Source of the DNA: Anaerolineae bacterium
GTDB lineage: Bacteria; Chloroflexota; Anaerolineae; UBA1429
Direction: 5' to 3'
DNA: 47,648 nt
NCBI GenBank assembly: GCA_021162655.1
Contig: JAGGYI010000083.1
Span: forward strand, 1-47,648
In this document: positions 5,402-47,648 of the stretch, piece by piece
Numbering within the stretch: position 1 is the stretch's first letter
How the letters are laid out: each line of letters opens with the position of its first letter
Notes under the pieces: model-generated
The model's database searches: none
Seen by the model: only the letters and a program-made list of their open reading frames with translations
What the model was told of the DNA's origin: nothing
Position numbers and translations under genes: made by a program

Positions 5402-5430
5402 TTGACCATTTCAACAAGCTCCGGTATGAT
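5402..5430 (+). promoter_or_regulatory. Sigma70-type promoter of the glycan-processing operon
   Basis: TTGACC (5402-5407), a 17-bp spacer and TATGAT (5425-5430), each 5 of 6 to consensus. The predicted start near 5437 lies about 28 nt before ATG 5465 and heads a run of six co-directional genes. Confidence 0.7.
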
Positions 5431-5464
5431 CGTAAATTTAGAAAACTCAAAAGAGGCAAGTACT

Positions 5465-6679: not shown

Positions 6680-6687
6680 GGGTCCCA

Positions 6688-7725: not shown

Positions 7726-7728
7726 GCA

Positions 7729-9222
7729 ATGGGAAAATCCTCTTTTCGCACACATCTCGCCATGATTCCTCCCTGGAACGAGGGCCCCCCTCAAATCAAT
7801 GCTCCCCTCACTTGGGGTATCGGGGTGCGCTCTCAGACCTTTATCCCCATACCCACCTTAGGGCAAAGGCCCCTTTCCTATCACATCGAGGGACTGCCCC
7901 AAGGACTAAAGCTGGACCCACGGCAGGGAGTTATCACTGGCAGCGTTTCCAGCGAGCTTGAGGTGGAACCGCTTCTCACCGTAAGCAACGTGCATGGACA
8001 GGATTCCAAAAGCATCATTCTAAAAGCTGGGGCTGGGCTAGCTCTCACCCCGCCTATGGGATGGAATAGCTGGAACTGTTGGGGAGCAAAGATAGACGCC
8101 GGCAAAGTTCGGCGAAGCGCGGATGCTCTCATCACTTCAGGTCTGGCTGCTCATGGCTACAACTACGTAAACATAGACGATGGATGGCAAGGAGACCGCG
8201 GGGGACCTTTCCATGCCCTCCAAGGCAATTCCAAGTTCCCCGATATGGCTGCCCTTTGCTCCCATGTCCATAGCAAAGGGCTCCGCATAGGCATCTATTC
8301 CACCCCTTGGTCTAGATCTTACGCAGGCTACCTAGGAGGCTCCGAGGGGGAATGTATTGAAGACCTGGAAAGCATAGAGCCCTACCGCCTCCAGAAAAGG
8401 CGATACCTCTGTGCCCACTCTTTCGCCCAAGAAGATGCCCGCCAGTGGGCCGTGTGGGGTATCGATTACCTCAAATACGACTGGGCCCACTGGAAAGCCG
8501 AGACAGTTGAAGAAATGCACAACGCCCTCTGTCGATCGGGTCGAGACATCGTGTACAGCCTCTCAAACTCGGCCCCATTTGAGCAAGCGAGCGTTTGGGC
8601 CCGCCTGGCCAACTTGTGGCGAACTACAGGAGACATTCGCGATGATTGGCAAGTCCTTTCACGGATTGCCTTCAACCAAGACAAGTGGATCCCCTACGCT
8701 GGCCCGGGCCACTGGAACGACCCCGATATGCTCGTGGTAGGTAAACTGGGCTGGGGATCCCCCCGCGAGAATCGGCTCACGCCAGATGAACAGATCACCC
8801 ACATGACAATGTGGGCTCTTCTGGCTGCCCCTCTTCTCATAGGCTGCGATCTCGAGCAGCTCGACGAGCTAACCATCCGCCTACTCTGCAACGACGAAGT
8901 CCTAGCCATCGATCAAGATCCTCTGGGGCAACAAGCCCATTGTGTGCGAGAGCTCAAACGGCATGCAGCAGATGGTCGAATATTTTCCCACCAGATGGTT
9001 TACGCCAGAACACTTTACGATGGGTCCCTTGCTGTTGGCTTTTTCAACAGAGGACCTCAACCTGAGCGAATCAAAGTTTCCTGGGCAGAACTGGGGCTTC
9101 ACGGGCGTAAGCGAGTTCGAGATATTTGGGCCCAGCGAGATATTGGCTATCATGAAAAGGAAATCACGATGAATGTGCCCGCTCACGGAGCCCAGTTTGT
9201 TCGTATTTATAACCGAGTCTAA
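7729..9222 (+). CDS. Glycoside hydrolase family 27 (alpha-galactosidase-like) with N-terminal Ig-like domain
   Basis: A 497-aa GH27 enzyme that would release terminal alpha-galactose (or alpha-N-acetylgalactosamine). Residues about 18-100 form a small putative Ig (He_PIG-like) domain with GLPQGLKLDPRQGVITG. The barrel begins at TPPMGWNSWNCWG (108-119) and contains YNYVNIDDGW (144-153). The nucleophile is Asp251 in YLKYDWAHW, and the acid/base is Asp302 in LWRTTGDIRDDW. The C-terminus (about 405-497) is the usual beta-sandwich. The family normally has YLKYDNC; here Asn is replaced by Trp, so specificity may be altered. There is no signal peptide, in contrast to many secreted GH27 proteins. It is mid-operon, 3 bp after the SGNH gene. 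Confidence 0.9.
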   Translation: MGKSSFRTHLAMIPPWNEGPPQINAPLTWGIGVRSQTFIPIPTLGQRPLSYHIEGLPQGLKLDPRQGVITGSVSSELEVEPLLTVSNVHGQDSKSIILKAGAGLALTPPMGWNSWNCWGAKIDAGKVRRSADALITSGLAAHGYNYVNIDDGWQGDRGGPFHALQGNSKFPDMAALCSHVHSKGLRIGIYSTPWSRSYAGYLGGSEGECIEDLESIEPYRLQKRRYLCAHSFAQEDARQWAVWGIDYLKYDWAHWKAETVEEMHNALCRSGRDIVYSLSNSAPFEQASVWARLANLWRTTGDIRDDWQVLSRIAFNQDKWIPYAGPGHWNDPDMLVVGKLGWGSPRENRLTPDEQITHMTMWALLAAPLLIGCDLEQLDELTIRLLCNDEVLAIDQDPLGQQAHCVRELKRHAADGRIFSHQMVYARTLYDGSLAVGFFNRGPQPERIKVSWAELGLHGRKRVRDIWAQRDIGYHEKEITMNVPAHGAQFVRIYNRV

Positions 9223-9236
9223 TGAGGTGCAAGAAA

Positions 9237-9713
9237 ATGATTCGAGCATATAAACCGGAGGACCTACCCATTATCATGGATATAGGCAACAGGGCCTGGA
9301 GAGAAATCTACCGAATGTTTCGCGAAACGTATGGCGATGAGCTTTTTTCTCTCCTTGTTCCAAACGAGAAAACTGCCAAGGGAGAGCAGATCAAAGCTCA
9401 TTGTGAAAAACACCCTGAATGGGTCTTTATCTGTGAAGAAAAGGGTAAAATCGTGGGGTTTGTCACTTTTACCCTTGACTATGAGAAAAGAATCGGTGAA
9501 ATAAGGAACAACGCCCGAGATCCCGATTGTAAACTCAAAGGGATCGGCCAGCAGATGTATCAAGCCGTTTTTGACTACTTTCGCGCTCACGGGATGCTTT
9601 ATGCCAAGGTAGGCACGGGCCTAGATTACGCCCATGCGCCCGCCCGAAGAGCCTATGAGCGAGCCGGCTTTAACATCCATCATGAAGACATCACTTATTA
9701 CAAAAAGCTTTGA
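9237..9713 (+). CDS. GNAT-family N-acetyltransferase
   Basis: A 158-aa GNAT protein. The N-terminal strand and helix MIRAYKPEDLPIIMDIGNRA, the central VFICEEKGKIVGFVTF strand pair, and the acetyl-CoA pyrophosphate-binding segment (RDPDCKLKGIGQQMYQAV, a variant of Q/RxxGxG/A) are followed by ARRAYERAGFN, the usual last motif. It transfers an acetyl group from acetyl-CoA to an unknown amine. ATG 9237 is chosen because GAGGTG precedes it; an ATG at 9222 overlaps the GH27 stop. It sits inside the glycan operon, where an amino-sugar or antibiotic-like substrate is possible but not shown. Confidence 0.85.
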   Translation: MIRAYKPEDLPIIMDIGNRAWREIYRMFRETYGDELFSLLVPNEKTAKGEQIKAHCEKHPEWVFICEEKGKIVGFVTFTLDYEKRIGEIRNNARDPDCKLKGIGQQMYQAVFDYFRAHGMLYAKVGTGLDYAHAPARRAYERAGFNIHHEDITYYKKL

Positions 9714-9742
9714 CATCACAATAGCCACTAGGAGGTCCCAAA

Positions 9743-10975
9743 ATGCCTGCTTCGCAAAAACCCCAAGTGCGCGCTGTCTTTTGCGACCATCGAGCAACAG
9801 ACGAGGAGGTTTACTCCGCGCTCAAGAGAGCAACCGACCCTCTCACTAGAGCTTGGGCCAAGCTCGAAAAAGCGGAGCGGATCACTATAAAATTCAATCA
9901 GTGTATCGAGCCAAATAAACTTGTTCGTTTTCATGGCAATTTCCAAGAGTTGGTGGATCCTAAAGTTGCTAGAGCCCTATTGCGTCTCCTTCGTGAGAGG
10001 ACCCACGCCGAAATCATTTGCACGGATGTAAGTAGCCGGGCCCACAGCTCCGGACTCAAAGTAGAGGACACACTGAGCCTGCTTCCGGTCCTCCGAGAAT
10101 TCGATGTTCCTTTTATTAACGGGAACGAGCCTCCTCTAAAGACATACCCCGTTCCCGGAGGAGGGCTCATGTTCCGCCAATATTTGCTCTCGCCCGCTGC
10201 CGTAGAAACGGACGCCTTTATCTCGGTTCAGAAAATGAAGAACCATGCTTTCATGGGGATTACTCTCTGCCTCAAGAACCTTTTTGGGCTTCCCCCTACA
10301 GAACCCCATGGCCGCTCTCGGAGGTATTTCCATCACCTCGTCCGGCTTCCCTACGTCATTGCCGATTTGGGCCAGATCGTGCAACCCACATTGAGCGTCA
10401 TCGACGCCCTTGTTGGCCAAGCAGGGCGAGAATGGGGTGGCGAAGGGCGCATCTGCAACACTCTCATCGCAGGGGATCAAGTAGTAGCCACTGACGCCTG
10501 CGGCACATATCTCATGGGGCACGACCCCTTGGCAGATTGGCCCCAACCTCCTTTTCTTCGTGACCGCAATGCCCTCCTCGTCGCCCATGAGAGTGGCTTT
10601 GGCACCGCAGATCTCTCGGCCATTGATTTCCAGTCCGAAGTAGAACCACCCGTAGCCTCTTTCTTCACTTATGAGATCGATCCACAGGAGACAATCGCCG
10701 CTTGGCTGCGTTCCACCTGTGAGCAAGCCCTTTACTACCGAGACAATCGGGAAAAATTCATCGAAAAATATGCCGGAGAATACATCCTCCTTCAGGACTA
10801 TGAAGTCGTCTGGCACGATCGCTTTAGCGAATTCCACCAGAGCCGACGAGACCTTGCTGGCCCAAGGAAAAAAAGTGCCCTTTGGTTCAAACTCGTCGAT
10901 CCAGAAGAGGCTGAAGGGGAACATTTCGAAGTCTACGAACGCACTTTGGCCTTGCTGAAAGAAAAAGGATTCTAA
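9743..10975 (+). CDS. DUF362 domain-containing protein
   Basis: A 410-aa protein resembling the DUF362 family: an early ITIKFNQC segment, IICTDVSSRAHSSGLK, DAFISVQKMKNHAFMGITLC followed by LKNLFGLPP, SVIDALVGQAGREWGGEG and LIAGDQVVATDACGTYLMG are the typical conserved blocks. In other members this domain is joined to a ferredoxin module; here no CxxCxxC cluster is seen. The function of the family is not settled. The C-terminal part (about 310-410) is rich in aromatic and charged residues and may be specific to this subgroup. AGGAGG lies 7 bases before ATG 9743. It is 29 bp after the GNAT gene and 19 bp before the sulfatase, so it is in the same operon. Confidence 0.8.
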   Translation: MPASQKPQVRAVFCDHRATDEEVYSALKRATDPLTRAWAKLEKAERITIKFNQCIEPNKLVRFHGNFQELVDPKVARALLRLLRERTHAEIICTDVSSRAHSSGLKVEDTLSLLPVLREFDVPFINGNEPPLKTYPVPGGGLMFRQYLLSPAAVETDAFISVQKMKNHAFMGITLCLKNLFGLPPTEPHGRSRRYFHHLVRLPYVIADLGQIVQPTLSVIDALVGQAGREWGGEGRICNTLIAGDQVVATDACGTYLMGHDPLADWPQPPFLRDRNALLVAHESGFGTADLSAIDFQSEVEPPVASFFTYEIDPQETIAAWLRSTCEQALYYRDNREKFIEKYAGEYILLQDYEVVWHDRFSEFHQSRRDLAGPRKKSALWFKLVDPEEAEGEHFEVYERTLALLKEKGF

Positions 10976-10994
10976 ACAAGGAGCTTTGAGGAAA

Positions 10995-12488
10995 ATGGCA
11001 GAAGTGACAAGACCAAATATCCTTATCTTTATGAACGACCAAGAACAGGGCGCTGTATTGGACCCAGACCATCCCTGCCGCACTCCAAATGCAGATCGCC
11101 TTGCTAGGGAAGGTATCCGTTTTTCCCACACTTATACAATAGCAGCCCATTGCTGCCCCTCAAGGGCCACGTTCATGACGGGGCTCTATCCAAGCCACCA
11201 TGGGATTTTTAATAACGTGCTCACCGATACGGCCATCCATACCTCTCTCCCTGCCGGCATCGTGACATTCAGTGAGGTGCTCAAGCAGAACGGTTACGAA
11301 CTGGCCTTTTCAGGGAAATGGCATGTTTGCCGGGATGAACAGCCCAAGGATCGAGGCTGGAAGCAATACCGCGCTACAGCTATCGGAGGAGAGCAACACG
11401 GTCCCCGAGCTCAGCAGTTCTTTGAATTTGCCCACCAAGCCGCAGGGGAAAATGCTCCACGTCGCAGAGGTGAACTCCTGCGGCCAGGCTGGGGACGCTA
11501 CCGCCTTTATGGCACAAGTGAGCCCCGTCCAGAGACAGACCCCTTTACCCCAGGCGATCTTCTTACAGTCCAAACAGGTATTCAAGCCCTCTATGATCTC
11601 GCTCAACAGTCCAAACCTTGGTGCCTCTTCATAGGTCCCTCGGGGCCTCACGACCCCTACATCATCCCCGAAAAGTACGCTACAATGTACGACCCTTCCC
11701 AAGTAGAGCTGCCTCCCAGCTTTTACGACAACCTTCAAGACAAACCCCGCATTTACCAACGGCAAAGACGCTTTTGGTCTCAACTGACAGAAGAGGAATA
11801 CAGAGAAGCTATCGCTCATTATTGGGGCTATTGCACTATGCAGGACGATTTCCTCGGCATGGTTCTCGACGCGCTAGAAAAGACTGGGCAAGCCGAGAAC
11901 ACCTTGGTCATCTTTATGTCTGACCATGGAGATTATGTCGGGGCCCACGGCCTCTTTATGAAAGGGGTTGCCGCTTTCGATGAATGCTACCGCATCCCTT
12001 GTGTCATGCGCTGGCCCAAAGGGATCGCTAACCCTGGTCGCGTTGTCGATGAATTCGTTACCCTCGCAGACTTTGCTCCGACTTTTGCAGAACTGGCAGG
12101 CGCTAGCATGCCCCAAACTAGTGGACGTAGTTTACTCCCTTTGCTCAGGGGAGAAACCCCCTCCGACTGGCCCGATGCTGTCTACAGCCAGTTCAATGGC
12201 GTGGAGCTGTATTATTCTCAGCGCTTTGTGCTAACAAAGGAATGGAAATACGTCTACAACGGGTTTGACTTTGACGAGCTTTATAACCTTCAAGAGGATC
12301 CCCACTGCATGCGTAACCTGGCGGGAGATCCCCGTTACCGACCCATCATCGAGGAAATGTGCAAAAAGATGTGGCGCAAAGCATACCTGGAAAAAGATTT
12401 CATCTTTAACTCTTACCCTACAGTTAGCATGGCTCCCTTCGGGCCCCTTGCAGGGCTTCGAGATTGGGAAGGAGAACCCCAGGGGTAG
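10995..12488 (+). CDS. Sulfatase (arylsulfatase family, formylglycine-dependent)
   Basis: A 497-aa sulfatase of the alkaline phosphatase superfamily. The maturation motif C-x-P-S-R is at Cys53 (AHCCPSRATFMTG), which must be converted to formylglycine. The first metal-binding block is degenerate (LIFMNDQEQGAV instead of the usual DD), while the C-terminal metal block VIFMSDHGDYVGAHGLFMKG is intact, as are GKWHVC and FIGPSGPHDPY. The end region (DELYNLQEDP then RNLAGDP) is the usual sulfatase tail. No signal peptide is seen, so the enzyme appears cytosolic. It is the last gene of the operon begun by the beta-helix gene. ATG 10995 is preceded by GAGG; TTG 10986 is an alternative. The natural sulfate ester is unknown. 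Confidence 0.9.
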   Translation: MAEVTRPNILIFMNDQEQGAVLDPDHPCRTPNADRLAREGIRFSHTYTIAAHCCPSRATFMTGLYPSHHGIFNNVLTDTAIHTSLPAGIVTFSEVLKQNGYELAFSGKWHVCRDEQPKDRGWKQYRATAIGGEQHGPRAQQFFEFAHQAAGENAPRRRGELLRPGWGRYRLYGTSEPRPETDPFTPGDLLTVQTGIQALYDLAQQSKPWCLFIGPSGPHDPYIIPEKYATMYDPSQVELPPSFYDNLQDKPRIYQRQRRFWSQLTEEEYREAIAHYWGYCTMQDDFLGMVLDALEKTGQAENTLVIFMSDHGDYVGAHGLFMKGVAAFDECYRIPCVMRWPKGIANPGRVVDEFVTLADFAPTFAELAGASMPQTSGRSLLPLLRGETPSDWPDAVYSQFNGVELYYSQRFVLTKEWKYVYNGFDFDELYNLQEDPHCMRNLAGDPRYRPIIEEMCKKMWRKAYLEKDFIFNSYPTVSMAPFGPLAGLRDWEGEPQG

Positions 12489-31359: not shown

Positions 31360-32349
31360 ATGAAAATTGGAGTGCGAACACACAACGGCGAAGAAAGAAG
31401 GTTGATCCTAGCTGAACAGCTTGGTGCTCAAGGGGGTAGTATTTGGGCCTGGGCTCTTCCAGGCTTTCGAGAGAACTGTGTCCCTGACCTGGACGGTATC
31501 TACCAAATGCGCGAACGCTTCGAAGCTCATAACCTTGCCCTAACAGGGATAGGGCTAGGGGCGGACTGTCTGAAAAATCAACTCTTGGGCCTACCTGAAA
31601 GAGACCGGGAAATCGACAACGTCTGCGAGACGATTCGGCGCATTGGTCAGGTGTACAAAGACAAACCCGCTGCAGAGAGTCCCGTCATTATCCTTGATCA
31701 ACGAGTGACCTATTGGGCAAAGGGCGGATGGACGGGAGGAGCTCGAGTGCTAGGACGTGGGGGAGTGCTCTTCTATGACTTTGATGCCTCTCGAGATGCC
31801 CATTTGCAGGATGCTCCGGCCGGACACGTATCCCTAGAGGAGGTTTGGGAGCGCATTGCCTATCTCTACGAACGTATCGTCCCCGTTGCAGAAGAAGCGG
31901 ATATTCGCCTCGCCACTCATCCCGACGATCCTCCCCTTCCAGAATATCGGGGTGCGGCTCACGCTCTGAACAGCTTGGCCGGTTTTAAGAAACTCTTTGA
32001 AATGTTCCCCAGCCCTTACAATGGCATGCTTCTGTGCTTAGGCTGCATGCAAGAGGCAGGTGAGGACCCCATCCAAGTCATCCGCTACTTTGGCAAGCAA
32101 AACAGGATATTCTATGTGCACTTTCGCAACGTCAAAGGGCGCGTTCCACACTACACAGAAGTTTTTCCCAACTTGGGAGACCTGGACATGGTCCAAGCAA
32201 TAAAGGCCTTCTGGGAGGTAGGGTATCAAGGCTTTCTCGTTCCTGATCATCAGTTTGGCATCCTTGGAGACGACGATTGGAATACCATAAGCCGCGCATG
32301 GCAGATCGGCTACATCACAGCCCTCATCCAAGCAACTGCTCCCTCTTGA
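31360..32349 (+). CDS. Mannonate dehydratase (UxuA)-like TIM-barrel protein
   Basis: A 329-aa protein resembling the UxuA family, which dehydrates D-mannonate to 2-keto-3-deoxy-gluconate. The metal-site blocks are recognisable: RLATHPDDPPLPEYRG (His), GMLLCLGCMQEAG (Cys), FYVHFRNVKG (His) and VPDHQFG (Asp-His). It is shorter than E. coli UxuA (about 394 aa) and lacks part of the inserted region, so the substrate may differ. AAGGAAGG precedes ATG 31360. It stands 37 bp behind the subtilase gene without an obvious terminator, but a functional link there is unlikely. A sugar-acid role would fit with the DapA/IlvD cluster 8 kb downstream. Confidence 0.8.
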   Translation: MKIGVRTHNGEERRLILAEQLGAQGGSIWAWALPGFRENCVPDLDGIYQMRERFEAHNLALTGIGLGADCLKNQLLGLPERDREIDNVCETIRRIGQVYKDKPAAESPVIILDQRVTYWAKGGWTGGARVLGRGGVLFYDFDASRDAHLQDAPAGHVSLEEVWERIAYLYERIVPVAEEADIRLATHPDDPPLPEYRGAAHALNSLAGFKKLFEMFPSPYNGMLLCLGCMQEAGEDPIQVIRYFGKQNRIFYVHFRNVKGRVPHYTEVFPNLGDLDMVQAIKAFWEVGYQGFLVPDHQFGILGDDDWNTISRAWQIGYITALIQATAPS

Positions 32350-39720: not shown

Positions 39721-40629
39721 ATGGCGCAAAACTTCCGGGGGATCTTTGCCATCATTCAGACCCCCTTCGATGAGAAGGGAACCCTTGTTTGGGAGGACTT
39801 TGAACGCGAATGCGATTGGCTCGCGCGATCTGGAGCCCACGGTTTAGTCTGGCCAGTTATGGCCAGCGAGTATCCTCTCATTTCCTATCCCGAGCGAGTT
39901 CAAGGGATGCGCCTCGCGGTCCAAGTGGTGAACAAACGCATCCCAGTAGTCATTGGGGTTGCCGATACAAGCAAAGCAGGGGCGGTCGCGCTGGCTGAAG
40001 AAGCTGGGCGAGCTGGCGCGGATGCCATCATTGCCATGCCTCCATGGCACATTAAACTCGCAACCCGTGAGCTCGTCGAAGATTACTATTACGCTCTTGC
40101 GCAAGCTGCTGGGCTCCCTGTCATTGTGCAGAATTGTGACCCTCCATTGGGATCTGGTCTACCAGCAGAGTTTGTCGTTGAACTATGCGAGAAGATTCCT
40201 CTCGTCCAATACCTCAAGGAAGAAAAATCTCCTCAGGGGCATGCGATCAGCCAAGTCCTCTCTCTAGCCTCGCCAGCCGTCAAAGGGGTCTTCTCGGGTG
40301 CCTCAGCTGATTGGCTGATTAGCGAGTATGAGCGAGGCGTTTGTGGGAACATGCCCGCCTGCGTCACTCCCGATATCGACGCCCAAATTTGGAACCTGCT
40401 AGAAGAAGGTAAAAAAGAAGAGGCTCGACGCCTACACAACCTCAAAGTCGTTCTGGACAATGCTCTTCGCTGTATGCCTTCCCGACGAGCAAGAAAAGAA
40501 GTCCTCGTTCGTCGGGGGGTAATTTCCTCCCCTTACGGCCGCAATTTGGGGGCTGCCAAGCTCGATGAGGTGGACCTTGCTGAATTGGACTATGCTCTGA
40601 GCTTGTTAGAGCCCTACTTTACCGTTTGA
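39721..40629 (+). CDS. DapA/NanA-superfamily lyase, probably a sugar-acid enzyme rather than DHDPS
   Basis: A 302-aa class I aldolase-fold protein. The Schiff-base Lys is Lys166 in LVQYLKEEKSP. Where DHDPS and N-acetylneuraminate lyase have a Tyr (YNxP), this protein has Gln137 (VIVQNCDPP), and the usual GTTGE loop is replaced by VMASEYPLIS. These changes argue against DHDPS. From memory, L-2-keto-3-deoxyarabonate dehydratase also has Gln in place of Tyr and a Glu two residues after the Lys (here Glu168), so it is a candidate. The next gene, 26 bp on, is an IlvD/Edd sugar-acid dehydratase, which fits that route. AAAGGA precedes ATG 39721. Confidence 0.82.
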   Translation: MAQNFRGIFAIIQTPFDEKGTLVWEDFERECDWLARSGAHGLVWPVMASEYPLISYPERVQGMRLAVQVVNKRIPVVIGVADTSKAGAVALAEEAGRAGADAIIAMPPWHIKLATRELVEDYYYALAQAAGLPVIVQNCDPPLGSGLPAEFVVELCEKIPLVQYLKEEKSPQGHAISQVLSLASPAVKGVFSGASADWLISEYERGVCGNMPACVTPDIDAQIWNLLEEGKKEEARRLHNLKVVLDNALRCMPSRRARKEVLVRRGVISSPYGRNLGAAKLDEVDLAELDYALSLLEPYFTV

Positions 40630-40655
40630 GCACTTACTAGAACCAGGAGGCCCTT

Positions 40656-42359
40656 ATGGCAAAAGGAGGACGCATTAGCCGGGCTTGGGTTGACGCAGAT
40701 AACCCTCTCCCTATGGAACGCCGTGGGCACCTGCGGGCGATGGGCTTTACCGATTTCGATATGGCACGCCCCTTTATCGGGGTTTGCAACCCATGGAGCG
40801 AACTTAACCCTGGGCATTGGCATTTCCGCACCCTTGCGGAAGCAGTCAAGAGAGGCATTTGGGCAGCCGGAGGTTTTCCTCTCGAATTCCCCACCATTTC
40901 GATGTGTGAGGTATTCCACAACATTTCTACTCTCATCTATCGCAACTTGATGGCCATCGATACAGAGGAATTCATCACTTCAATGCCCTTCGACGGAGTC
41001 GTGCTCCTTTCTACCTGTGACAAAGACGTTCCCGCCCAAGCGATGGCCCTTGCTACCGCCAATAAACCCGCCATCATCGTTACTGGCGGAACCCGCTTGG
41101 CTGGCTATTACCATGGAGAAACTATCGCCTGTTCCACCGACACCCAGAAATTCCAGTGGAACTATAAGGCCGGCACAGCAAGCGCCGAGGAATTACGCGA
41201 AGTAGAAATGAATGGCTTTTTCAACACTTGCGGCGCGTGTGGGGTCATGGGCACAGCAAACAGTGTACAATCGATGGCTGAGGCACTAGGGCTAACCCTT
41301 CCGGGCTGCGCCTCCATCCCCGCCGTTTACGCTCAGCGCATCCACATCGCAGAGGCGACCGGCCGCAAAATCGTCGAGCTGGTAGAACGCAACATTCGCC
41401 CTTCAGACATTCTCACCCGCCCTGCCTTTGAAAACGCCATTCGAGTGCTGATGGCCACAGGAGCAAGCACCAACTTGGTCATCCACCTCATTGCCATCGC
41501 GCGCAGAGCAGGGGTTGACCTCACTCTTGACGACTTTGACCGGCTCGGCCGGGAGACCCCCTTTATCGCCAATGTAAAACCAAGTGGCGCCTATACGGTC
41601 GAAGAGCTCTACCGAGCCGGCGGCATCGCCGCAGTAATGAAAGAGCTTGAGCCCCTTCTTGACACTTCTGTCATGACAGCCAGCGGGCAGACCCTAAAAG
41701 AGAACCTTAAAGGAGTCCGCGTTCGTGATAGGCGCATCATCCGGCCCCTAGATGATCCCCTCTCCCCTGACGGAGGGCTACGCATTCTCCATGGGAGCCT
41801 CGCTCCTGATGGAGCAGTTATCAAAACGGCCGCAGCCTCTCCCAAGCTCCTACGGCACAAGGGACCCGCAGTGGTCCTTAAGAGCCTCGTTCAAGAGGAT
41901 ATCGACCGAGACTTGGCTCACATCACCCCAGATCATATCATTGTAAACCGCTACATGGGCCCAAAAGGAGCACCTGGCATGCCTGAGGTTGGCCCAACAG
42001 GACTACCCCGGCATTTGCTCCGCCAGGGAGTTCGCGACCTCGTCCGCTTGACAGATGCGCGTATGAGTGGCACATCTTATGGCACAGTAGTGTTACACAT
42101 TGCTCCAGAAGCCGCGGTAGGGGGACCACTAGCCATAGTAGAAGATGGCGACATGATCGAACTAGATGCTTATAAAGGAGTCCTCAATCTCCTTGTAGAT
42201 GAGCGTGAAATTCAGCGCCGCCTGGAACGATGGCGCCCCCCAAAGCCAGCGTATACAAGTGGCTACCGAGCACTATGGATCGACCAAGTAACCCAAGCCC
42301 CTGAGGGTTGCGACTTTCAATTTTGCATTGACAAAGATTGGCTGACAAAGCGTCTCTGA
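40656..42359 (+). CDS. IlvD/Edd-family dehydratase (sugar-acid type, arabinonate dehydratase-like)
   Basis: A 567-aa Fe-S dehydratase. Cluster ligands are Cys44 (GVCNPWSELNPGH), Cys121 (STCDKDVPAQ) and Cys192 or Cys195 (TCGACGVMGTANS). Further conserved blocks are HGSLAPDGAVIKTAA, GPKGAPGMPEVGPTG and TDARMSGTSYGTVVLHIAPE. The CNPWSELNPGHWH opening is of the sugar-acid (L-arabinonate/D-xylonate/galactonate) group rather than of IlvD dihydroxy-acid dehydratase. It would convert an aldonate to its 2-keto-3-deoxy form, the substrate type for the upstream DapA-like enzyme. GGAGG precedes ATG 40656. The exact sugar acid is not known. Confidence 0.92.
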   Translation: MAKGGRISRAWVDADNPLPMERRGHLRAMGFTDFDMARPFIGVCNPWSELNPGHWHFRTLAEAVKRGIWAAGGFPLEFPTISMCEVFHNISTLIYRNLMAIDTEEFITSMPFDGVVLLSTCDKDVPAQAMALATANKPAIIVTGGTRLAGYYHGETIACSTDTQKFQWNYKAGTASAEELREVEMNGFFNTCGACGVMGTANSVQSMAEALGLTLPGCASIPAVYAQRIHIAEATGRKIVELVERNIRPSDILTRPAFENAIRVLMATGASTNLVIHLIAIARRAGVDLTLDDFDRLGRETPFIANVKPSGAYTVEELYRAGGIAAVMKELEPLLDTSVMTASGQTLKENLKGVRVRDRRIIRPLDDPLSPDGGLRILHGSLAPDGAVIKTAAASPKLLRHKGPAVVLKSLVQEDIDRDLAHITPDHIIVNRYMGPKGAPGMPEVGPTGLPRHLLRQGVRDLVRLTDARMSGTSYGTVVLHIAPEAAVGGPLAIVEDGDMIELDAYKGVLNLLVDEREIQRRLERWRPPKPAYTSGYRALWIDQVTQAPEGCDFQFCIDKDWLTKRL

Positions 42360-42384
42360 AAAAACTCTCAAAAGGAGATCAACA

Positions 42385-42894
42385 TTGGATACCGGAGAGA
42401 AAACCCTAGCCGAAATACAACTTCAACGGGCAGGGGTCATCCAGTTTGACCCAAAACGTTGCCTAACCTGCCGAGAGTGCGAGGTCGCTTGTTCGCTTGC
42501 TCATGAAGGAGAATGCAATCCCGCTCTCTCACGCATCCAGATCCGCTTTGACGATTTCGTTCCCGGCTTTCCTGATGCATTTGTCTGCAAGCAATGTGAT
42601 TGGCCTGCCTGCTACTATGCGTGTGCAGCCACCTGGGAAGAACCAGCGATCTTTATCGACCCTCAAACCGGGGCACGTTACATCGATGAAAGCAAATGCC
42701 GAGGGTGCGGAATCTGCCTCCAAGCTTGTCCTCTAACGCCAGAAAGATCTGTCATCTTTAGCAAACGGGTGGGACGCAAGCGTATTTACTTCAAGTGTGA
42801 TCTCTGCAAAGACCGTCCCGAAGGCCCACTTTGTGTTTCCGTGTGCCCCAGCCATGCACTTACTTTTATCCCCGCAGAAAAGAGACGCAGATAG
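42385..42894 (+). CDS. Four-cluster [4Fe-4S] ferredoxin (HycB/AOR-accessory type)
   Basis: A 169-aa electron carrier with 16 cysteines in four groups: CLTCRECEVAC, CKQCDWPACYYAC, CRGCGICLQAC and CDLCKDRPEGPLCVSVC. This is the layout of HycB/DmsB-like subunits and of the small ferredoxin subunit linked with aldehyde:ferredoxin oxidoreductases. The start is TTG 42385 (AAAGGAG 8 bases upstream); no other in-frame ATG exists. The gene is 25 bp after the IlvD/Edd gene. No oxidoreductase catalytic subunit is in the window, so it may serve one encoded elsewhere, perhaps oxidising an aldehyde intermediate of sugar-acid breakdown. This is inference. Confidence 0.9.
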   Translation: MDTGEKTLAEIQLQRAGVIQFDPKRCLTCRECEVACSLAHEGECNPALSRIQIRFDDFVPGFPDAFVCKQCDWPACYYACAATWEEPAIFIDPQTGARYIDESKCRGCGICLQACPLTPERSVIFSKRVGRKRIYFKCDLCKDRPEGPLCVSVCPSHALTFIPAEKRRR

Positions 42895-42930
42895 AAAAAA
42901 ATCGACGGGGCCTCTCGGGGAGGCCCCGTC
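42895..42930 (-). terminator. Intrinsic terminator of the lactonase gene
   Basis: A 10-bp perfect GC-rich stem GACGGGGCCT/AGGCCCCGTC (42904-42913 and 42921-42930). On the minus strand a T-rich run follows. It lies 6 bp past the lactonase stop codon and faces the ferredoxin stop. Confidence 0.88.
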
Positions 42931-42936
42931 CTCTGA

Positions 42937-44013
42937 CTAAAGGGCATAGAACTTAATGCATACTGGGATAGGGGCTTCTGTGATCTCTCCCGTAAAGGAG
43001 AGGAGTCCAGTTTCTCGGTTAACCGTGTAGGCAACGATGTTATCGCTCTTTTGATTTGCTACCAAGAGCAACTCACCGTCGGGCGAAAGGGCGAAATTTC
43101 TAGGAAAGCTCCCACGGGTCGGCTCGTGGCCCACACAACTGAGCTTGCCCGTCTCCTTCTCCACCGCAAAGATCACGATGCTATCGTGTCCCCTATTTGA
43201 CCCATAGACGAATCGTCCATCCAACGAAACGTGCACATCCGCACAATAGCTCGTCCCCTCAAAGCCTTCAGGCAATGCGGTAATCGTCTGCACTTCCTGG
43301 AGGATCCCTCTCTCCGCATCATAATGAAAGACCGCCATCGTCGAGTCGAGCTCGTTGATGACATAGACGTACCTACCGTTGGGATGAAAAGCTATATGCC
43401 TGGGCCCAGCTCCAGGCGCCAACTGCGCCCAGGGAGTCTCGTTGGGCAAAAGCTTTCCCTTCTGGGGATCCAACTTGTAAACCATCACCCGATCAAGACC
43501 CAAATCGGCCGCCAAAATATAGCGGTTCTGAGGATCGGGAAGAATACTATGAGCATGTGCCTTTTCTTGACGGTTAGGATCCGCACCCTTGCCCTCGTGC
43601 TGAACAGAATCGCTAGCCGGCTCTAGTGCTCCATCCTCACGGATGGGAAGGACGGCTACACTCCCTCCAACATAGTTGGCAACAAAGGCGAACTTGCCCG
43701 TCTTGTCTACACTTACATAGCAGGGCCCTTCCCCTTGAGAAAGCTGCTGATTCAGAAAACGCAGTTTGCCCGTCTCAGGATCGATGGCGAAAGCGCTAAC
43801 TCCTCCACTGGGCTTGCCTTCCAGCTCTCCCACCTCGTTCACAGAATAGAGATAGCGCCCACTCGGATGAATGGCAAGAAAAGACGGACTGACTATGGGA
43901 GTCACATCAACAAGTTCCAGCTTCCCCTTGGCAAGGTCCACACGGTAGAGATAGATCCCCTCTCCTTCCTTTCGAGTATACGTCCCCACATAAACGAGCA
44001 TCTCTGGAGCCAT
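42937..44013 (-). CDS. Lactonase family beta-propeller (6-phosphogluconolactonase YbhE-like)
   Basis: A 358-aa seven-bladed propeller of the lactonase (YbhE/Pgl) family: VYVGTYTRKEGEGIYLYRVD opens it, then repeated blades with LAIHPSGRYLYSVNE, GPCYVSVDKTGKFAFVANYV, DLGLDRVMVYKLDPQKGKL, GPRHIAFHPNGRYVYVINEL and RNFALSPDGELLLVANQKSD. Members hydrolyse 6-phosphogluconolactone or other sugar lactones. ATG 44013 follows GGAGG; the longer reading from 44079 overlaps the promoter. It is convergent with the DapA/IlvD/ferredoxin genes, and an aldonolactonase step would complete their route, which is a reasonable guess but not shown. Confidence 0.9.
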   Translation of the reverse strand: MAPEMLVYVGTYTRKEGEGIYLYRVDLAKGKLELVDVTPIVSPSFLAIHPSGRYLYSVNEVGELEGKPSGGVSAFAIDPETGKLRFLNQQLSQGEGPCYVSVDKTGKFAFVANYVGGSVAVLPIREDGALEPASDSVQHEGKGADPNRQEKAHAHSILPDPQNRYILAADLGLDRVMVYKLDPQKGKLLPNETPWAQLAPGAGPRHIAFHPNGRYVYVINELDSTMAVFHYDAERGILQEVQTITALPEGFEGTSYCADVHVSLDGRFVYGSNRGHDSIVIFAVEKETGKLSCVGHEPTRGSFPRNFALSPDGELLLVANQKSDNIVAYTVNRETGLLSFTGEITEAPIPVCIKFYAL

Positions 44014-44050
44014 CGTTCCGCCTCCACTTAAGATTCTAAAAACACATCCC

Positions 44051-44079
44051 AGTATAACCTCTCCCGTCCCTTCCGGCAA
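44051..44079 (-). promoter_or_regulatory. Sigma70-type promoter of the lactonase gene
   Basis: On the minus strand TTGCCG (44079-44074), 17 bp, TATACT (44056-44051). The start near 44044 gives a leader of about 30 nt to ATG 44013. Confidence 0.6.
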
Positions 44080-44237: not shown

Positions 44238-44954
44238 ATGAAAAATCTGTTATTGCTAATACCCCTTGTCTTGCTTTCAGTCGCCGGTTGTGCAAAACCC
44301 TCATCCTCCACACCATCTGCTGCCCTCTTGCATCCCACCTATACCCCATACCCGACGCCCAAGCCATTGGCTACCTGGACCCTCTACCCAACTTACACCC
44401 CTCCTCCTACCTTTACCCCTTGGCCCACTTATACACCATACCCTACCTACACCCCGCCTAAAGCCACAAGCACACCTTCCCCGAGTGCCACTCCCAAGCG
44501 CAAAATCGGCACAAGGAAAAACCCTGTTCCTCTTGGGGAATGGGTCACTGTAAAAAAAGATGATAAGGTCCTTCGAGGGCGGATCGCCAAAGTCATCAAA
44601 GACCAAGAAGCCGTAAAAAAACGCTTGCGGAGCGACAATATGTTCAACAAAGTACCGGCTGAAGGGTACAAGGGTATTCTGATATATTTTGTCTGTGAAT
44701 ATGTCAGTGGCCCAGAGGATGAAACTGTAAGCGTTTCTTCCTCGGATTTCGATTTCCTTTGCGGAGACGGTAAATTCTACGAAGCACCCTTTGCTGTCCT
44801 AAACGACGAATTTGGCGGGACCGGCTACCCTGGTGCCACCTTCGAGGGATGGCTGTATCGCGGTTGCGCAGTGACCAACAAGCCGGACTTCCTTATCTGG
44901 AAAACCTCATGGTTAACCGGGCTAGGCGAAGGTATCTGGATGGCGTTGGAGTGA
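44238..44954 (+). CDS. Lipoprotein with Tyr/Thr/Pro-rich repeat linker and DUF4352-like domain
   Basis: A 238-aa lipoprotein. The signal peptide ends at the lipobox LSVAGC (Cys18), followed by a low-complexity linker (about 33-85) made of PTYTPYPT, YPTYTPPPTFTPWPTY and similar units. After a basic turn comes a folded domain (about 93-238) that begins NPVPLGEWVTVKKDDKVLRG and contains GYKGILIYFVCEYVSGPEDE and CGDGKFYEAPFAVLNDEF; this resembles DUF4352-like extracellular Ig domains. ATG 44238 has GGGAGG upstream; an earlier start at 44217 lacks one. It is monocistronic between the lactonase promoter region and tRNA-Arg. Likely a surface-exposed binding protein; the ligand is unknown. Confidence 0.82.
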   Translation: MKNLLLLIPLVLLSVAGCAKPSSSTPSAALLHPTYTPYPTPKPLATWTLYPTYTPPPTFTPWPTYTPYPTYTPPKATSTPSPSATPKRKIGTRKNPVPLGEWVTVKKDDKVLRGRIAKVIKDQEAVKKRLRSDNMFNKVPAEGYKGILIYFVCEYVSGPEDETVSVSSSDFDFLCGDGKFYEAPFAVLNDEFGGTGYPGATFEGWLYRGCAVTNKPDFLIWKTSWLTGLGEGIWMALE

Positions 44955-44992
44955 TCATCAACATGGAGAGGCATAGCTAGATCAAGGCCACT

Positions 44993-45032
44993 AAAACGGT
45001 GGCCAGGAAACGAAACTCGTTTCCTGGCCACC
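44993..45032 (-). terminator. Intrinsic terminator of tRNA-Arg
   Basis: A perfect 16-bp stem GGTGGCCAGGAAACGA/TCGTTTCCTGGCCACC (44998-45013 and 45017-45032) with a 3-nt loop. On the minus strand it is followed by GTTTTAG. It lies 6 bp after the tRNA 3' end. Confidence 0.85.
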
Positions 45033-45038
45033 ATGCAG

Positions 45039-45112
45039 CGCGCCCAGCAGGACTCGAACCTGCAACCAACGGATTCGAAGTCCGGCACTCTATCCAATTG
45101 AGCTATGGGCGC
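45039..45112 (-). tRNA. tRNA-Arg (anticodon TCG)
   Basis: A 74-nt minus-strand cloverleaf: acceptor GCGCCCA/TGGGCGC, D arm GCTCAATTGGATAGAG, anticodon loop CTTCGAA with TCG as anticodon, and T arm GCAGGTTCGAGTCCTGC. One C-U mismatch lies at the first anticodon-stem pair. CCA is not encoded. It decodes CGA (and probably other CGN codons if modified). Confidence 0.95.
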
Positions 45113-45123
45113 ACGCAACTTTG

Positions 45124-45152
45124 ATTTTAGTGAGCTTCTCTTCCCCCGTCAA
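45124..45152 (-). promoter_or_regulatory. Promoter of tRNA-Arg
   Basis: On the minus strand TTGACG (45152-45147), 17 bp, TAAAAT (45129-45124). The start near 45117 lies about 5 nt before the tRNA 5' end. Confidence 0.75.
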
Positions 45153-45469
45153 ATGCGAGCATGTTACCACACTGGAAGAGGTCACTTGAAAATGAAAAAA
45201 AACTCTATACTCATACGAGATCCTGAATGGATAAATCGCCAAAGGCGTTGAGCGGCGGCCAAGAGCACTATAAGAAAAGAGACAAACTATCTCTATCCAA
45301 CGGAATAGTTCACCCATTAATAACTTGCTTAGAGAAAGTAATTTCTGATATAATAAATTAACATGATCATGGGAGGAAAATAAGATCAGCGTCGAGGAAC
45401 CCAATCTACTTTGAAGATGTCTTCATCCGCACATGCGTGAAACGCTGGTGCTACAGACAGAGGAAAAAG
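45153..45469. other. Intergenic region between tRNA-Arg and the CRISPR-Cas genes
   Basis: This stretch holds no convincing gene. It contains the cas promoter at 45325 and, after it, an untranslated leader of about 110 nt with a GGGAGGAAAATAAG motif (45372-45385) that looks like a Shine-Dalgarno but is not followed by a usable start. I see no direct repeats of CRISPR type. The AT-rich part 45181-45360 may be leader sequence or intergenic filler. Confidence 0.5.
45325..45354 (+). promoter_or_regulatory. Extended -10 promoter of the cas operon
   Basis: TTGCTT (45325-45330), 18 bp, TATAAT (45349-45354), the last with TG one base upstream (TGATATAAT, an extended -10). The predicted start near 45361 lies about 110 nt before cas6. 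Confidence 0.7.
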
Positions 45470-46282
45470 ATGCGAATAAAAATTCAACTAAATGCCATTG
45501 ATAAAGCTATCATCCTACCCATACATTACAATGCGACCATCCAAGGGTTCATCTACCAACACCTTGAGGCCAGTCTCGCTCAATGGATTCATGACCATGG
45601 ATGGGCGGATGCTAAACGGCATTTAAAATTGTTTACCTTCTCCCGGCCACATGGAACCTTCCACCGGCGAGGAGGCACCCTATACTTTCCAGAGCATCTA
45701 ACCCTGACCATCGCCTCCCCTATGGACACCCTTCTCGAATCGCTAGCCCTTCATCTGATGCAAACAAGGATAGTGCGGTTGGGAGAAACACGCGCAGAGT
45801 TGGCATCTATTGAGGTCATTGCTCCTGCTCAGTATCAATGCCCGGTATTCTTGAAGGCACTCTCTCCAATTACAGTCTACAGCACTCTCGAGACCTTGGA
45901 GGGCCACAAGAAAACTTATTATTACGCTCCCCAAGAGCCCGAGTTCGCCAAGCAAATACTAGCCAACTTGCAGCGCAAAATACGTGCCTGGTCGGGAGTA
46001 GACATTTCCTTTGACGACGCCAACTTTCGCCCCGTAAAGGTAAGCAACCGCAACCTGGTGGTAGCTCGCTACAAGAGCACCATCATCAAAGGCTGGACCG
46101 GCATTTACGAATTGAGTGCACCCGAGCCCTACTTTCATATGGCCCTGAACGCAGGCCTAGGCGCAAAAAACAGCCAGGGATTTGGGTTTGTAGAAGTATG
46201 GGAACCGAAAAGTTCCAGCAAGACTAAGAAGCGCAAACAGGTTTTATACGGAGAGGGACCAAAGCTTGTTTCGGTGACTTAG
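45470..46282 (+). CDS. cas6: CRISPR-associated endoribonuclease Cas6
   Basis: A 270-aa Cas6 that cuts the CRISPR precursor RNA inside its repeats. Two ferredoxin-like halves are recognisable: the N-terminal MRIKIQLNAIDKAIILPIHY with FIYQHLEASLAQWIHDHGW (His31, His41 or His43 are candidate catalytic residues), the middle FTFSRPHGTFHRRGG region, and the C-terminal glycine-rich loop LGAKNSQGFGFVEVW that marks the family. ATG 45470 is chosen because AGAGG precedes it; an upstream reading from 45437 adds an Arg/Lys-rich piece without support. It is the first gene of a type I operon and lies 27 bp before cas8b. Confidence 0.93.
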   Translation: MRIKIQLNAIDKAIILPIHYNATIQGFIYQHLEASLAQWIHDHGWADAKRHLKLFTFSRPHGTFHRRGGTLYFPEHLTLTIASPMDTLLESLALHLMQTRIVRLGETRAELASIEVIAPAQYQCPVFLKALSPITVYSTLETLEGHKKTYYYAPQEPEFAKQILANLQRKIRAWSGVDISFDDANFRPVKVSNRNLVVARYKSTIIKGWTGIYELSAPEPYFHMALNAGLGAKNSQGFGFVEVWEPKSSSKTKKRKQVLYGEGPKLVSVT

Positions 46283-46309
46283 CACAAGATTCCCAAAGGG
46301 GGCAGAAAG

Positions 46310-47648
46310 ATGTTAGAAGCATTGCGAAAGCTTGGTGAAATCCGGGGCGGACCGGCACAGCATGACGTGCTTAGCGCCTCACACATTATCATTGTAGACA
46401 TTTCCTTCCATACAGGAGAGATTTTAGGTGTATCTCTGCGAAATTTCGAATCACATCATGCAGAGAAATGTCTGTACACACAACACAGTGCCAATCGAAC
46501 GCCGGTTGTGCCCACTATCAAAATAGCGCTTCGGGATTTGGAGAAAGCAGAGGGGCACCTACGCCTCAAAAGATCCTTATACCAAAAGATGAAGAGAAGC
46601 ATTACGCGACTGTCCAAGGCAATAGAAGTGCCCATCGATTCGGAATCCGTTCTTAGTAGAATCGAAATGGAAATAGGGCGAATCTTATCTCCAAAGATAA
46701 CTGGACTAGCAGCTACCTTGACATTTAATGGAAAATTTATGAGCGAAATTCCCGTCATTCAGGAGCACTTTGGCAAGAGTAGGCGAAAACGAGCATCTAA
46801 AAGTTTTTCAAAAGGCATATGTGCTGTCTGTGGCAAGATCAAAGAAGTTAGCGGTGACATCTCTCCCTTCACATTTTACACCATCGACAAGCCCGGCTAT
46901 GTGGTTGGCGGCTTTGACAAGTCTTTAGCCTACAAAGCCTTTCCCTTGTGCTACGACTGCCGAGACCTCATTCAAAGGGGCCGCCAGCATGTGGAAGAGA
47001 ACCTCAAGTTCTCCTTCGTGTCTCAGTCTCATATCCAATATCTACTCATTCCTGACTTTATCTTTGGCACGGAACCCGTGCACCAAGAAGTATTGGACAT
47101 TCTCACCAAGGAACGAACTCAGCGCCAGCGGCGCTTGCACTCCCTCAAGCACCAAGAACTGCGGCGGATCACCGATGACGAAGAGGACATCCTGAGCCTG
47201 CTCAGCGAAGAGCAGGACGTAATGACATTCCATTTCCTCTTTATGACTCACCAACAAAGCCGAGAGACCATCGAGCTCTACATCCAGGACGTATATCCCT
47301 CCCGCCTGCGGGCATTGCTGGATGCCAAGGTCACTGTGGAACGCCTCATGCGCCTACCGCGAGAGGATGGCACATGGCGAGAGTACACTTTCACTTATGC
47401 TACGGTGTATCGCTTCTTCTCCAAGGCCGATCCTACCAAACGAGATCCGGACCTATTACGTCATTTCTACGATCTAGTGGATCGTACCTTCCGAGGGGTG
47501 CCCGTATCCATTCGCTATCTAATCCCCTTTTTGGTTCGGCAAATCCGTCACGATGTGGTCACCCCCGATCGGAGAGATCAGGGACAATACCGTTTCACCA
47601 TTCAAGATGCTTTGGCTACGTTGCTATTTGTACAGCTTGTGACACAAA
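46310..47648 (+). CDS. cas8b: Type I-B CRISPR-associated protein Cas8b (Csh1/TM1802-like), partial at window edge
   Basis: The reading frame is open from ATG 46310 to the last base (446 codons), so the 3' end is outside the window. A zinc-finger-like pair CAVC (Cys171, Cys174) and CYDC (Cys214, Cys217) sits in the middle, as in the TM1802/Csh1 large subunits of type I-B Cascade. SASHIIIVDISFHTGEILG at the N-terminus and the later HFLFMTHQQSRETIELYIQD segment also suit that group. A GGGGG-rich Shine-Dalgarno lies 9 bases upstream. As large subunit it would recognise the PAM in target DNA. Assignment to I-B rests on the Cas6-Cas8b order and the Cys pattern; cas7, cas5 and cas3 should follow to the right. 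Confidence 0.83.
   Translation, partial: MLEALRKLGEIRGGPAQHDVLSASHIIIVDISFHTGEILGVSLRNFESHHAEKCLYTQHSANRTPVVPTIKIALRDLEKAEGHLRLKRSLYQKMKRSITRLSKAIEVPIDSESVLSRIEMEIGRILSPKITGLAATLTFNGKFMSEIPVIQEHFGKSRRKRASKSFSKGICAVCGKIKEVSGDISPFTFYTIDKPGYVVGGFDKSLAYKAFPLCYDCRDLIQRGRQHVEENLKFSFVSQSHIQYLLIPDFIFGTEPVHQEVLDILTKERTQRQRRLHSLKHQELRRITDDEEDILSLLSEEQDVMTFHFLFMTHQQSRETIELYIQDVYPSRLRALLDAKVTVERLMRLPREDGTWREYTFTYATVYRFFSKADPTKRDPDLLRHFYDLVDRTFRGVPVSIRYLIPFLVRQIRHDVVTPDRRDQGQYRFTIQDALATLLFVQLVTQ

What the first reader, a model, noticed from the sequence alone, without database searches (positions are those of the whole stretch)
39721..44013. Possible oxidative sugar-acid pathway with an altered DapA-family active site
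A DapA-family protein, an IlvD/Edd sugar-acid dehydratase and a four-cluster ferredoxin lie in a row, and a lactonase is convergent. The DapA-like enzyme keeps Lys166 but has Gln137 where DHDPS has Tyr and lacks the GTTGE loop. From memory this matches L-2-keto-3-deoxyarabonate dehydratase rather than DHDPS, so the set could run lactone, aldonate, keto-deoxy acid, and then a semialdehyde. The last oxidation would then need an enzyme such as an aldehyde oxidoreductase, for which the ferredoxin may serve as partner.
Basis: partly seen in the sequence, partly recalled or inferred. Interest (0 to 1): 0.6.

Follow-up and report, generated by a model that had tools for sequence, protein, structure and literature searches.

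The report
Anaerobic sugar-acid breakdown operon with tungsten-enzyme subunit
In an uncultured Chloroflexota bacterium, three adjacent genes look like one pathway that dehydrates a sugar acid twice and then oxidises the resulting aldehyde with a probable tungsten enzyme, using oxygen-sensitive or altered versions of enzymes known from air-breathing bacteria; no step has been tested in the laboratory.

Summary
DapA-like 39721-40629, IlvD/Edd 40656-42359 and a four-cluster Fe-S protein 42385-42894 are tightly spaced with ribosome-binding sites; a convergent lactonase follows. The DapA-like enzyme is not DHDPS. It has Lys166 and Gln137, and also Glu168, the aligned counterpart of Glu173, the C3 base of L-2-keto-3-deoxyarabonate (L-KDA) dehydratase. 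It lacks that enzyme's second base (Glu200) and forms a separate clade, so it probably works like L-KDA dehydratase without being one. The IlvD/Edd protein is not the BCAA enzyme. It is sister to the [2Fe-2S] sugar-acid dehydratases but carries the cysteine set of [4Fe-4S] members. The Fe-S protein is best read as the small subunit of an aldehyde oxidoreductase (AOR): its orthologs sit directly upstream of an AOR gene in two genomes, and all 7 genomes with it, of 396 searched, carry that AOR. In this genome that AOR is on another contig without a small subunit of its own. The genome shows no aldehyde dehydrogenase except ProA. Weak points: the lactonase link, the exact L-KDA assignment, unknown substrates, and a class II aldolase beside the AOR that allows aldol cleavage instead.

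The parts
39721..40629 (+). DapA-family (class I, Schiff-base) enzyme of the 'Gln type': Gln137, Lys166, Glu168; predicted keto-deoxy acid dehydratase
   Evidence: PF00701; residues against E. coli DapA and L-KDA dehydratase; tree
40129..40131 (+). codon of Gln137 (Tyr133 in E. coli DHDPS; Gln143 in A. brasilense L-KDA dehydratase)
   Evidence: role of Gln143 from PMC9795676
40216..40224 (+). codons of Lys166-Glu167-Glu168; Lys166 = Schiff-base Lys171, Glu168 = catalytic Glu173 of L-KDA dehydratase
   Evidence: PMC9795676
40656..42359 (+). IlvD/Edd aldonate dehydratase of a separate clade with the [4Fe-4S]-type cysteine pattern (Gly53, Cys84, Cys121, Cys192, Cys195)
   Evidence: PF00920/PF24877, NF004784 over cut-off; cysteines and trees
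40905..40907 (+). codon of Cys84, at the Cys-Asp-Gly position of IlvD/Edd enzymes; absent from the [2Fe-2S] sugar-acid dehydratases
   Evidence: PMC5770437
42385..42894 (+). four-[4Fe-4S] small subunit (AorA/WorS type) of a probable tungsten aldehyde oxidoreductase whose large subunit is on another contig (C141)
   Evidence: best PDB matches are small subunits of the AOR family; adjacency and co-occurrence
42904..42930 (.). 11-bp GC-rich hairpin with T-run on the - strand; shared end of the operon and the convergent lactonase gene
42937..44079 (-). seven-bladed beta-propeller lactonase (PF10282), convergent; possible but unproven member of the pathway (ATG start at 44013)
   Evidence: distribution

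Best explanation
The three co-directional genes are an operon for anaerobic oxidative breakdown of an aldonic acid. (1) The IlvD/Edd protein dehydrates the aldonate to a 2-keto-3-deoxy acid, probably with an oxygen-labile [4Fe-4S] cluster. (2) The DapA-like enzyme binds this acid as a Schiff base on Lys166; Glu168, positioned by Gln137, removes the C3 proton and the C4 hydroxyl leaves. This is L-KDA-dehydratase-like dehydration, not aldol chemistry, and gives a keto-acid semialdehyde (alpha-ketoglutaric semialdehyde if the substrate has five carbons). (3) The four-cluster Fe-S protein is the small subunit of an AOR whose large subunit is encoded on contig C141; the pair oxidises the aldehyde and passes electrons to ferredoxin, in place of the NAD(P)-dependent semialdehyde dehydrogenase that was not found in the genome. 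Shown here by sequence: gene arrangement, residues, clade positions, co-occurrence of Fe-S protein and AOR, and absence of other aldehyde dehydrogenase hits. Inferred: substrates, the order of steps, cluster type, the metal, and that the AOR acts on this pathway's product.
For: Residues: Gln137/Lys166/Glu168 are invariant in 37 of 37 sampled Gln-type sequences and in 6 of 6 L-KDA dehydratases; 9 of 9 sampled Tyr-type enzymes have Tyr and no Glu at K+2. Profile search puts L-KDA dehydratase first (123 bits against 99 for the next). Sugar-acid context of relatives: IlvD next to DapA in G593 and G584; proteobacterial Gln-type relatives lie next to enolase-family dehydratase genes, mostly with 2-dehydro-3-deoxygalactonokinase, SMP-30 lactonase and/or sugar transporter genes; E. 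coli yagE-yagF has the same gene order. A separate true IlvD lies with ilvB, ilvC and citramalate synthase. Fe-S protein: directly upstream of the AOR_C141-type gene in G611 and G674; in 396 genomes of the class all 7 genomes with it have this AOR (8 in all; hypergeometric p=3e-14; p=2e-4 within the family alone). In this genome the AOR neighbours an M19 peptidase and an HpaI-type aldolase whose orthologs (59-62%) flank the Fe-S gene in G541 and G566, and no Fe-S subunit was found in the 18 kb around the AOR. The only Aldedh-family hit is ProA.
Against: Glu200, the C5 base of L-KDA dehydratase, is Ser195 here and is absent from all 37 sampled Gln-type sequences. The Fe-S gene is not next to DapA/IlvD in any relative seen, and IlvD neighbours vary. 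An HpaI-family class II aldolase is next to the AOR gene, which fits aldol cleavage. In several proteobacteria the Gln-type enzyme sits with a kinase (and in Variovorax a KDPGal aldolase) for the De Ley-Doudoroff route, where a second dehydratase would not obviously be needed. The genome is a draft of 322 contigs (95.7% complete). No alpha-ketoglutarate-specific evidence exists.
Confidence: 0.42

Rival explanations
1. Aldol-cleavage (Dahms/non-phosphorylative Entner-Doudoroff-like) route: IlvD makes a 2-keto-3-deoxy acid, which is cleaved to pyruvate and an aldehyde (glycolaldehyde, glyceraldehyde or lactaldehyde) by the HpaI-family aldolase next to the AOR gene, or by the DapA-like enzyme itself; AOR plus Fe-S subunit oxidises that aldehyde.
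For: HpcH/HpaI aldolase (best NCBIfam models 4-hydroxy-2-oxoheptanedioate, 2-dehydro-3-deoxyglucarate and KDR aldolase, all below cut-off) directly before AOR_C141, and its ortholog beside the Fe-S gene in G541/G566; E. coli yagE-yagF is an aldolase plus dehydratase pair; AOR-family enzymes with glycolytic roles are known (PMC13328260).
Against: The DapA-like enzyme has lost the Tyr used in aldol chemistry and has a Glu at K+2 (role of Tyr from PMC9795676); the aldolase is not in this window and is seen near the AOR or Fe-S gene in only three genomes.
Confidence: 0.25
2. The Fe-S gene is only a neighbour: DapA and IlvD form a two-gene sugar-acid step and the Fe-S protein serves an unrelated AOR reaction such as aldehyde detoxification.
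For: The Fe-S gene is next to DapA/IlvD only in this genome; G602, G423 and G508 have the IlvD type without this Fe-S protein or AOR.
Against: 25-bp spacing with its own ribosome-binding site; 6 of 8 genomes with this AOR have this IlvD type (p=5e-10 over 396, but only p=0.05 within the family), and all six same-family genomes with this AOR have this DapA type (p=0.001).
Confidence: 0.2
3. The DapA-like enzyme is a Schiff-base lyase or dehydratase for a different keto acid (hexose-derived, deoxy-sugar or amino-sugar), so the product is not a semialdehyde and the AOR is not the next step.
For: Glu200, needed to form the C5 aldehyde in L-KDA dehydratase, is missing in the whole sampled Gln-type group; no Gln-type relative outside the L-KDA dehydratase clade that I found has a reported function.
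Against: IlvD of the sugar-acid group is adjacent and relatives sit in sugar-acid operons.
Confidence: 0.13

Closest known systems
L-2-keto-3-deoxyarabonate dehydratase (A. brasilense; PDB 3FKK, 7C0C-7C0E; DHDPS/NAL family)
   Same: Schiff-base Lys, Gln in place of the aldolase Tyr, Glu at K+2 (Glu173), Ser-Glu in place of the GTTGE loop; best solved relative by profile
   Different: 23-28% identity; separate clade (100/100 for each); no Glu200
E. coli YagE-YagF (2-keto-3-deoxygluconate aldolase and D-xylonate dehydratase)
   Same: DapA-family gene followed by IlvD/Edd-family sugar-acid dehydratase gene
   Different: YagE is a Tyr-type aldolase; YagF belongs to a distant IlvD/Edd branch; no AOR subunit
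[2Fe-2S] sugar-acid dehydratases (L-arabinonate dehydratase RlArDHT 5J83/5J84; PuDHT; CcXyDHT)
   Same: nearest sister group of the window's IlvD/Edd protein; catalytic Ser and CDK motif kept
   Different: first cluster Cys replaced by Gly53; extra Cys84 and Cys192; motifs CDKDVP and GACGVM instead of CDKTTP and GHCM/GTCNT
AorA small subunit of Aromatoleum AOR (8C0Z) and WorS subunits of two-subunit (Class II) tungsten oxidoreductases
   Same: four-[4Fe-4S] ferredoxin-like subunit; top four PDB matches are small subunits of AOR/WOR-family entries; upstream of an AOR gene in two genomes
   Different: in this genome its gene is apart from the AOR gene and sits behind sugar-acid genes
Weimberg-type (Route II) pathway of L-arabinose/D-xylose
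   Same: lactonase, IlvD/Edd aldonate dehydratase, DapA-family keto-deoxy acid dehydratase
   Different: no alpha-ketoglutaric semialdehyde dehydrogenase found; AOR proposed instead

Membership tests
L-2-keto-3-deoxyarabonate dehydratase | Schiff-base lysine (Lys171) | tested here: met
   Lys166
L-2-keto-3-deoxyarabonate dehydratase | Gln143 in place of the aldolase Tyr | tested here: met
   Gln137
L-2-keto-3-deoxyarabonate dehydratase | Glu173, base for the C3 proton | tested here: met
   Glu168; also in 37/37 sampled Gln-type sequences, although PMC9795676 calls it unique to L-KDA dehydratases
L-2-keto-3-deoxyarabonate dehydratase | Glu200, base for the C5 proton | tested here: not met
   Ser195; 0/37 Gln-type sequences have Glu there, 6/6 L-KDA dehydratases do
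L-2-keto-3-deoxyarabonate dehydratase | falls in the L-KDA dehydratase clade | tested here: not met
   separate clades, each 100/100; still separate without active-site columns
L-2-keto-3-deoxyarabonate dehydratase | activity on L-2-keto-3-deoxyarabonate | not testable with these tools
   needs purified enzyme
DHDPS (DapA) | Tyr133, Arg138, Thr44/Thr45; NCBIfam dapA cut-off | tested here: not met
   Gln137, Pro142, Met47/Ala48; 66 bits against a cut-off of 206
[2Fe-2S] sugar-acid dehydratase (SADHT) | three cluster cysteines including Cys59/60 and the GCDKTT motif | tested here: not met
   Gly53 at the first site; TCDKDV motif; definitions from PMC9314677 and PMC5770437
[2Fe-2S] sugar-acid dehydratase (SADHT) | nearest clade in a tree of the family | tested here: met
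   sister group, 100/99
[4Fe-4S]-type IlvD/Edd | Cys at the CDG position, CDK Cys and third Cys; no Cys59 | tested here: met
   Cys84, Cys121, Cys195, Gly53 in 9/9 orthologs; Cys84 is followed by Glu-Val, not Asp-Gly, and E. coli IlvD itself has Asp at that site
[4Fe-4S]-type IlvD/Edd | cluster type by spectroscopy | not testable with these tools
   needs EPR/Mossbauer on anaerobically purified protein
AOR/WOR small subunit (AorA/WorS) | four [4Fe-4S] motifs | tested here: met
AOR/WOR small subunit (AorA/WorS) | best sequence relatives are AOR/WOR small subunits | tested here: met
   8C0Z chain C first, then 9MQX chain E, 6X6U and 6X1O chain B; the large subunits of the same four entries match AOR_C141
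AOR/WOR small subunit (AorA/WorS) | gene adjacent to an AOR large-subunit gene | tested here: inconclusive
   yes in G611 and G674; not in the window, the AOR of that type is on contig C141

The most novel reading that the evidence does not exclude
A fully anaerobic, ferredoxin-reducing version of the Weimberg-type sugar-acid pathway: a [4Fe-4S] aldonate dehydratase that branches as sister to the [2Fe-2S] enzymes, a new class of Gln/Glu Schiff-base keto-deoxy acid dehydratases (a large uncharacterised group spread over Chloroflexota and proteobacterial sugar-acid operons), and a two-subunit tungsten AOR doing the last oxidation instead of an NAD(P) dehydrogenase.
Probability: 0.3. Interest if true: 0.75.

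Novelty: new variant of a known kind. Interest (0 to 1): 0.55.

Why it matters
Only five of 92 clades of tungsten oxidoreductases have a defined physiological role (PMC13328260); a small-subunit gene placed in a sugar-acid operon gives a testable substrate class for one more. The group of DapA-family enzymes with Gln and Lys-x-Glu contradicts the statement that the catalytic Glu173 is unique to L-KDA dehydratases (PMC9795676). It suggests that many proteins annotated only as 'dihydrodipicolinate synthase family' in sugar-acid operons share this chemistry. The IlvD/Edd clade with a [4Fe-4S] cysteine set next to the [2Fe-2S] sugar-acid dehydratases bears on how the cluster type changed in that family.

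Tried and rejected
DHDPS role: rejected (other gene passes the dapA cut-off; no DapB hit; residues). BCAA dihydroxy-acid dehydratase role for the window's IlvD: rejected, the true one is in an ilvD-ilvB-ilvC-citramalate synthase cluster. L-arabinonate dehydratase equivalog: score 663 against cut-off 882. Lactonase as a fixed partner: not next to the module in relatives, and present in genomes without it. Structure prediction gave a fair TIM-barrel model (pLDDT 79), but the fold search ranks DHDPS, NAL and L-KDA dehydratase about equally, so it does not decide function. A paper search for an AOR acting on alpha-ketoglutaric semialdehyde found none. First gene calls by longest ORF were wrong in GC-rich loci and were replaced by tblastn and codon-scored calls.
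Full report
Observation. DapA-like, IlvD/Edd and Fe-S genes run in one direction with gaps of 26 and 25 bp, each downstream gene having a good ribosome-binding site; the lactonase gene converges on them across a GC-rich hairpin. The Fe-S protein has four full [4Fe-4S] motifs. The genome is a draft of 3.1 Mb in 322 contigs, 95.7% complete; the phylum Chloroflexota is inferred from named relatives.

The DapA-like enzyme. Alignment to E. coli DapA, NanA and YagE and to the solved A. brasilense L-KDA dehydratase (numbering checked against the published residues) gives Lys166 = Lys171, Gln137 = Gln143 (Tyr133 in DHDPS) and Glu168 = Glu173; the GTTGE loop is VMASE. According to PMC9795676, Glu173 and Glu200 are the two catalytic bases of L-KDA dehydratase and Glu173 is not conserved in any other DHDPS/NAL enzyme. 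Here Glu173 is conserved in all 37 sampled Gln-type sequences, the window protein included, while Glu200 is absent from all of them; an acid at position 202 (Asp207 in L-KDA dehydratase) is kept in 36 of 37 and is a candidate substitute, untested. Trees separate Tyr-type from Gln-type enzymes (100/99 with the active-site columns and long branches left out), with L-KDA dehydratases and the window's own group as distinct 100/100 clades inside the Gln type. A profile of the window's group finds L-KDA dehydratase first among solved structures, 123 bits against 99 and 90 for the next two. So it works, most likely, like L-KDA dehydratase, but two defining features fail and I do not file it there.

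What it is not. The genome has eight DHDPS-family hits; one of them passes the NCBIfam dapA cut-off. No DapB_C match was found while 11 of 14 control genomes gave one. A true IlvD lies with ilvB, ilvC and citramalate synthase on contig C318, so the window's IlvD is not the BCAA enzyme.

The IlvD/Edd enzyme. It scores over the cut-off of NF004784 and below that of L-arabinonate dehydratase. Nine genomes of the 396 searched hold a 79-100% identical form, after which identity drops to 54%. All nine have Gly where the [2Fe-2S] pentonate dehydratases have the first cluster Cys, and Cys at the position of the Cys-Asp-Gly motif; all 17 sampled sugar-acid relatives show the reverse. In the tree the nine form the sister group of the [2Fe-2S] sugar-acid dehydratases (100/99), with the Cys-Asp-Gly enzymes outside (E. 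coli IlvD itself has Asp at that site). PMC5770437 and PMC9314677 define the [2Fe-2S] class by the cysteine and motifs that are missing here. A [4Fe-4S] cluster is therefore predicted, not shown; whether the pattern was retained or regained cannot be decided.

The Fe-S protein. Its four best PDB matches are small subunits of AOR/WOR-family entries. Close orthologs (65-75%) exist in six other genomes of the 396; in G611 and G674 they lie directly upstream of an AOR gene of the type found in this genome on contig C141. All seven genomes with the Fe-S protein have this AOR type, which occurs in only eight genomes (p = 3e-14; within the family alone p = 2e-4). In this genome AOR_C141 follows an M19 peptidase and an HpaI-type aldolase and no Fe-S subunit was found in the 18 kb around it, while in G541 and G566 orthologs of that peptidase and aldolase (59-62%) flank the Fe-S gene. 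These lines agree that the window's Fe-S protein is the small subunit of AOR_C141. The metal (tungsten) is inferred from the family. Six of the eight AOR genomes also have the IlvD type, and all six same-family genomes with the AOR have the window's DapA type; these links are weaker after allowing for kinship (p = 0.05 and 0.001), and DapA was searched in only 30 genomes at this depth.

Pathway. The genome has about eight AORs and only ProA, beside ProB, as an Aldedh-family gene. If a semialdehyde or aldehyde is formed, an AOR is the likely oxidant. I favour the dehydration route because of Gln137/Glu168. The alternative is cleavage by the HpaI-type aldolase beside AOR_C141, with the AOR oxidising the small aldehyde. 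Relatives of the window's DapA type sit next to IlvD (G593, G584), in tandem pairs (G584, G611), or next to an SDR dehydrogenase, in some loci near an enolase-family dehydratase. Proteobacterial Gln-type relatives sit next to enolase-family dehydratase genes, mostly with 2-dehydro-3-deoxygalactonokinase, lactonase and/or sugar transporter genes. So the sugar-acid setting is solid while the substrate is open. The lactonase is a plausible but unproven member: relatives of at least 50% identity occur in 7 of the 9 IlvD-type genomes (this one included) and in 3 of 10 others, and in none of those relatives was it seen beside the module.

Literature. L-KDA dehydratase mechanism and Weimberg enzymes: PMC9795676 and PMC6336799. 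Filament-forming AOR small subunit AorA: PMC10413684. Classes of tungsten oxidoreductases, with few clades of known role: PMC13328260. A search for papers joining an AOR with alpha-ketoglutaric semialdehyde found none in the open-access library; absence there is weak evidence.

Verdict. Observation confirmed; interpretation partly supported and in two respects strengthened (Glu168, AOR subunit); the exact L-KDA assignment and the lactonase link are not supported. New variant of a known kind.

Noticed in passing
window 31360-32349 (+): UxuA-like (D-mannonate dehydratase family, PF03786, 144 bits) protein, shorter and below the NCBIfam uxuA cut-off; a second possible sugar-acid dehydratase in the window.
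   Followed up: no
window 5351-12488 (+): Run of carbohydrate-active genes: right-handed beta-helix protein, SGNH/GDSL esterase, alpha-galactosidase (Melibiase_2), then a DUF362 protein and a sulfatase.
   Followed up: no
window 45437-47648 (+): Cas6 followed by a Cas8b/TM1802-type gene cut by the contig end: start of a type I CRISPR-Cas operon; no repeat array found in 44900-47648.
   Followed up: partly
L063 (G000:C79, about 8001-8892, - strand) and L003/L060 (G000:C85): Two further DHDPS-family genes of this genome appear broken: one of Gln type is split by a frame change, one of DHDPS type has two TGA codons inside the match.
   Followed up: no
L210, L211, L212, L214, L215: In Chloroflexota, several AOR genes (with small-subunit genes) lie beside sugar genes such as SMP-30 lactonase, Gfo/Idh dehydrogenase, sugar ABC transporters, carbohydrate kinase or enolase-family dehydratase, judged by eye from the translations, suggesting a wider link of AORs with sugar oxidation.
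   Followed up: partly
L071 3952-5352 (-) and L257 6520-7815 (-): A GH4 glycosidase (alpha-galactosidase-like in this genome) lies near the AOR_C141-type gene here, and a similar-looking gene (by eye) lies beside it in G401.
   Followed up: no
L149 11514-12512 (+): In G541 the close IlvD ortholog is followed by a Tyr-type DapA-family protein just over the dapA cut-off, so the partner of this IlvD differs between genomes.
   Followed up: partly
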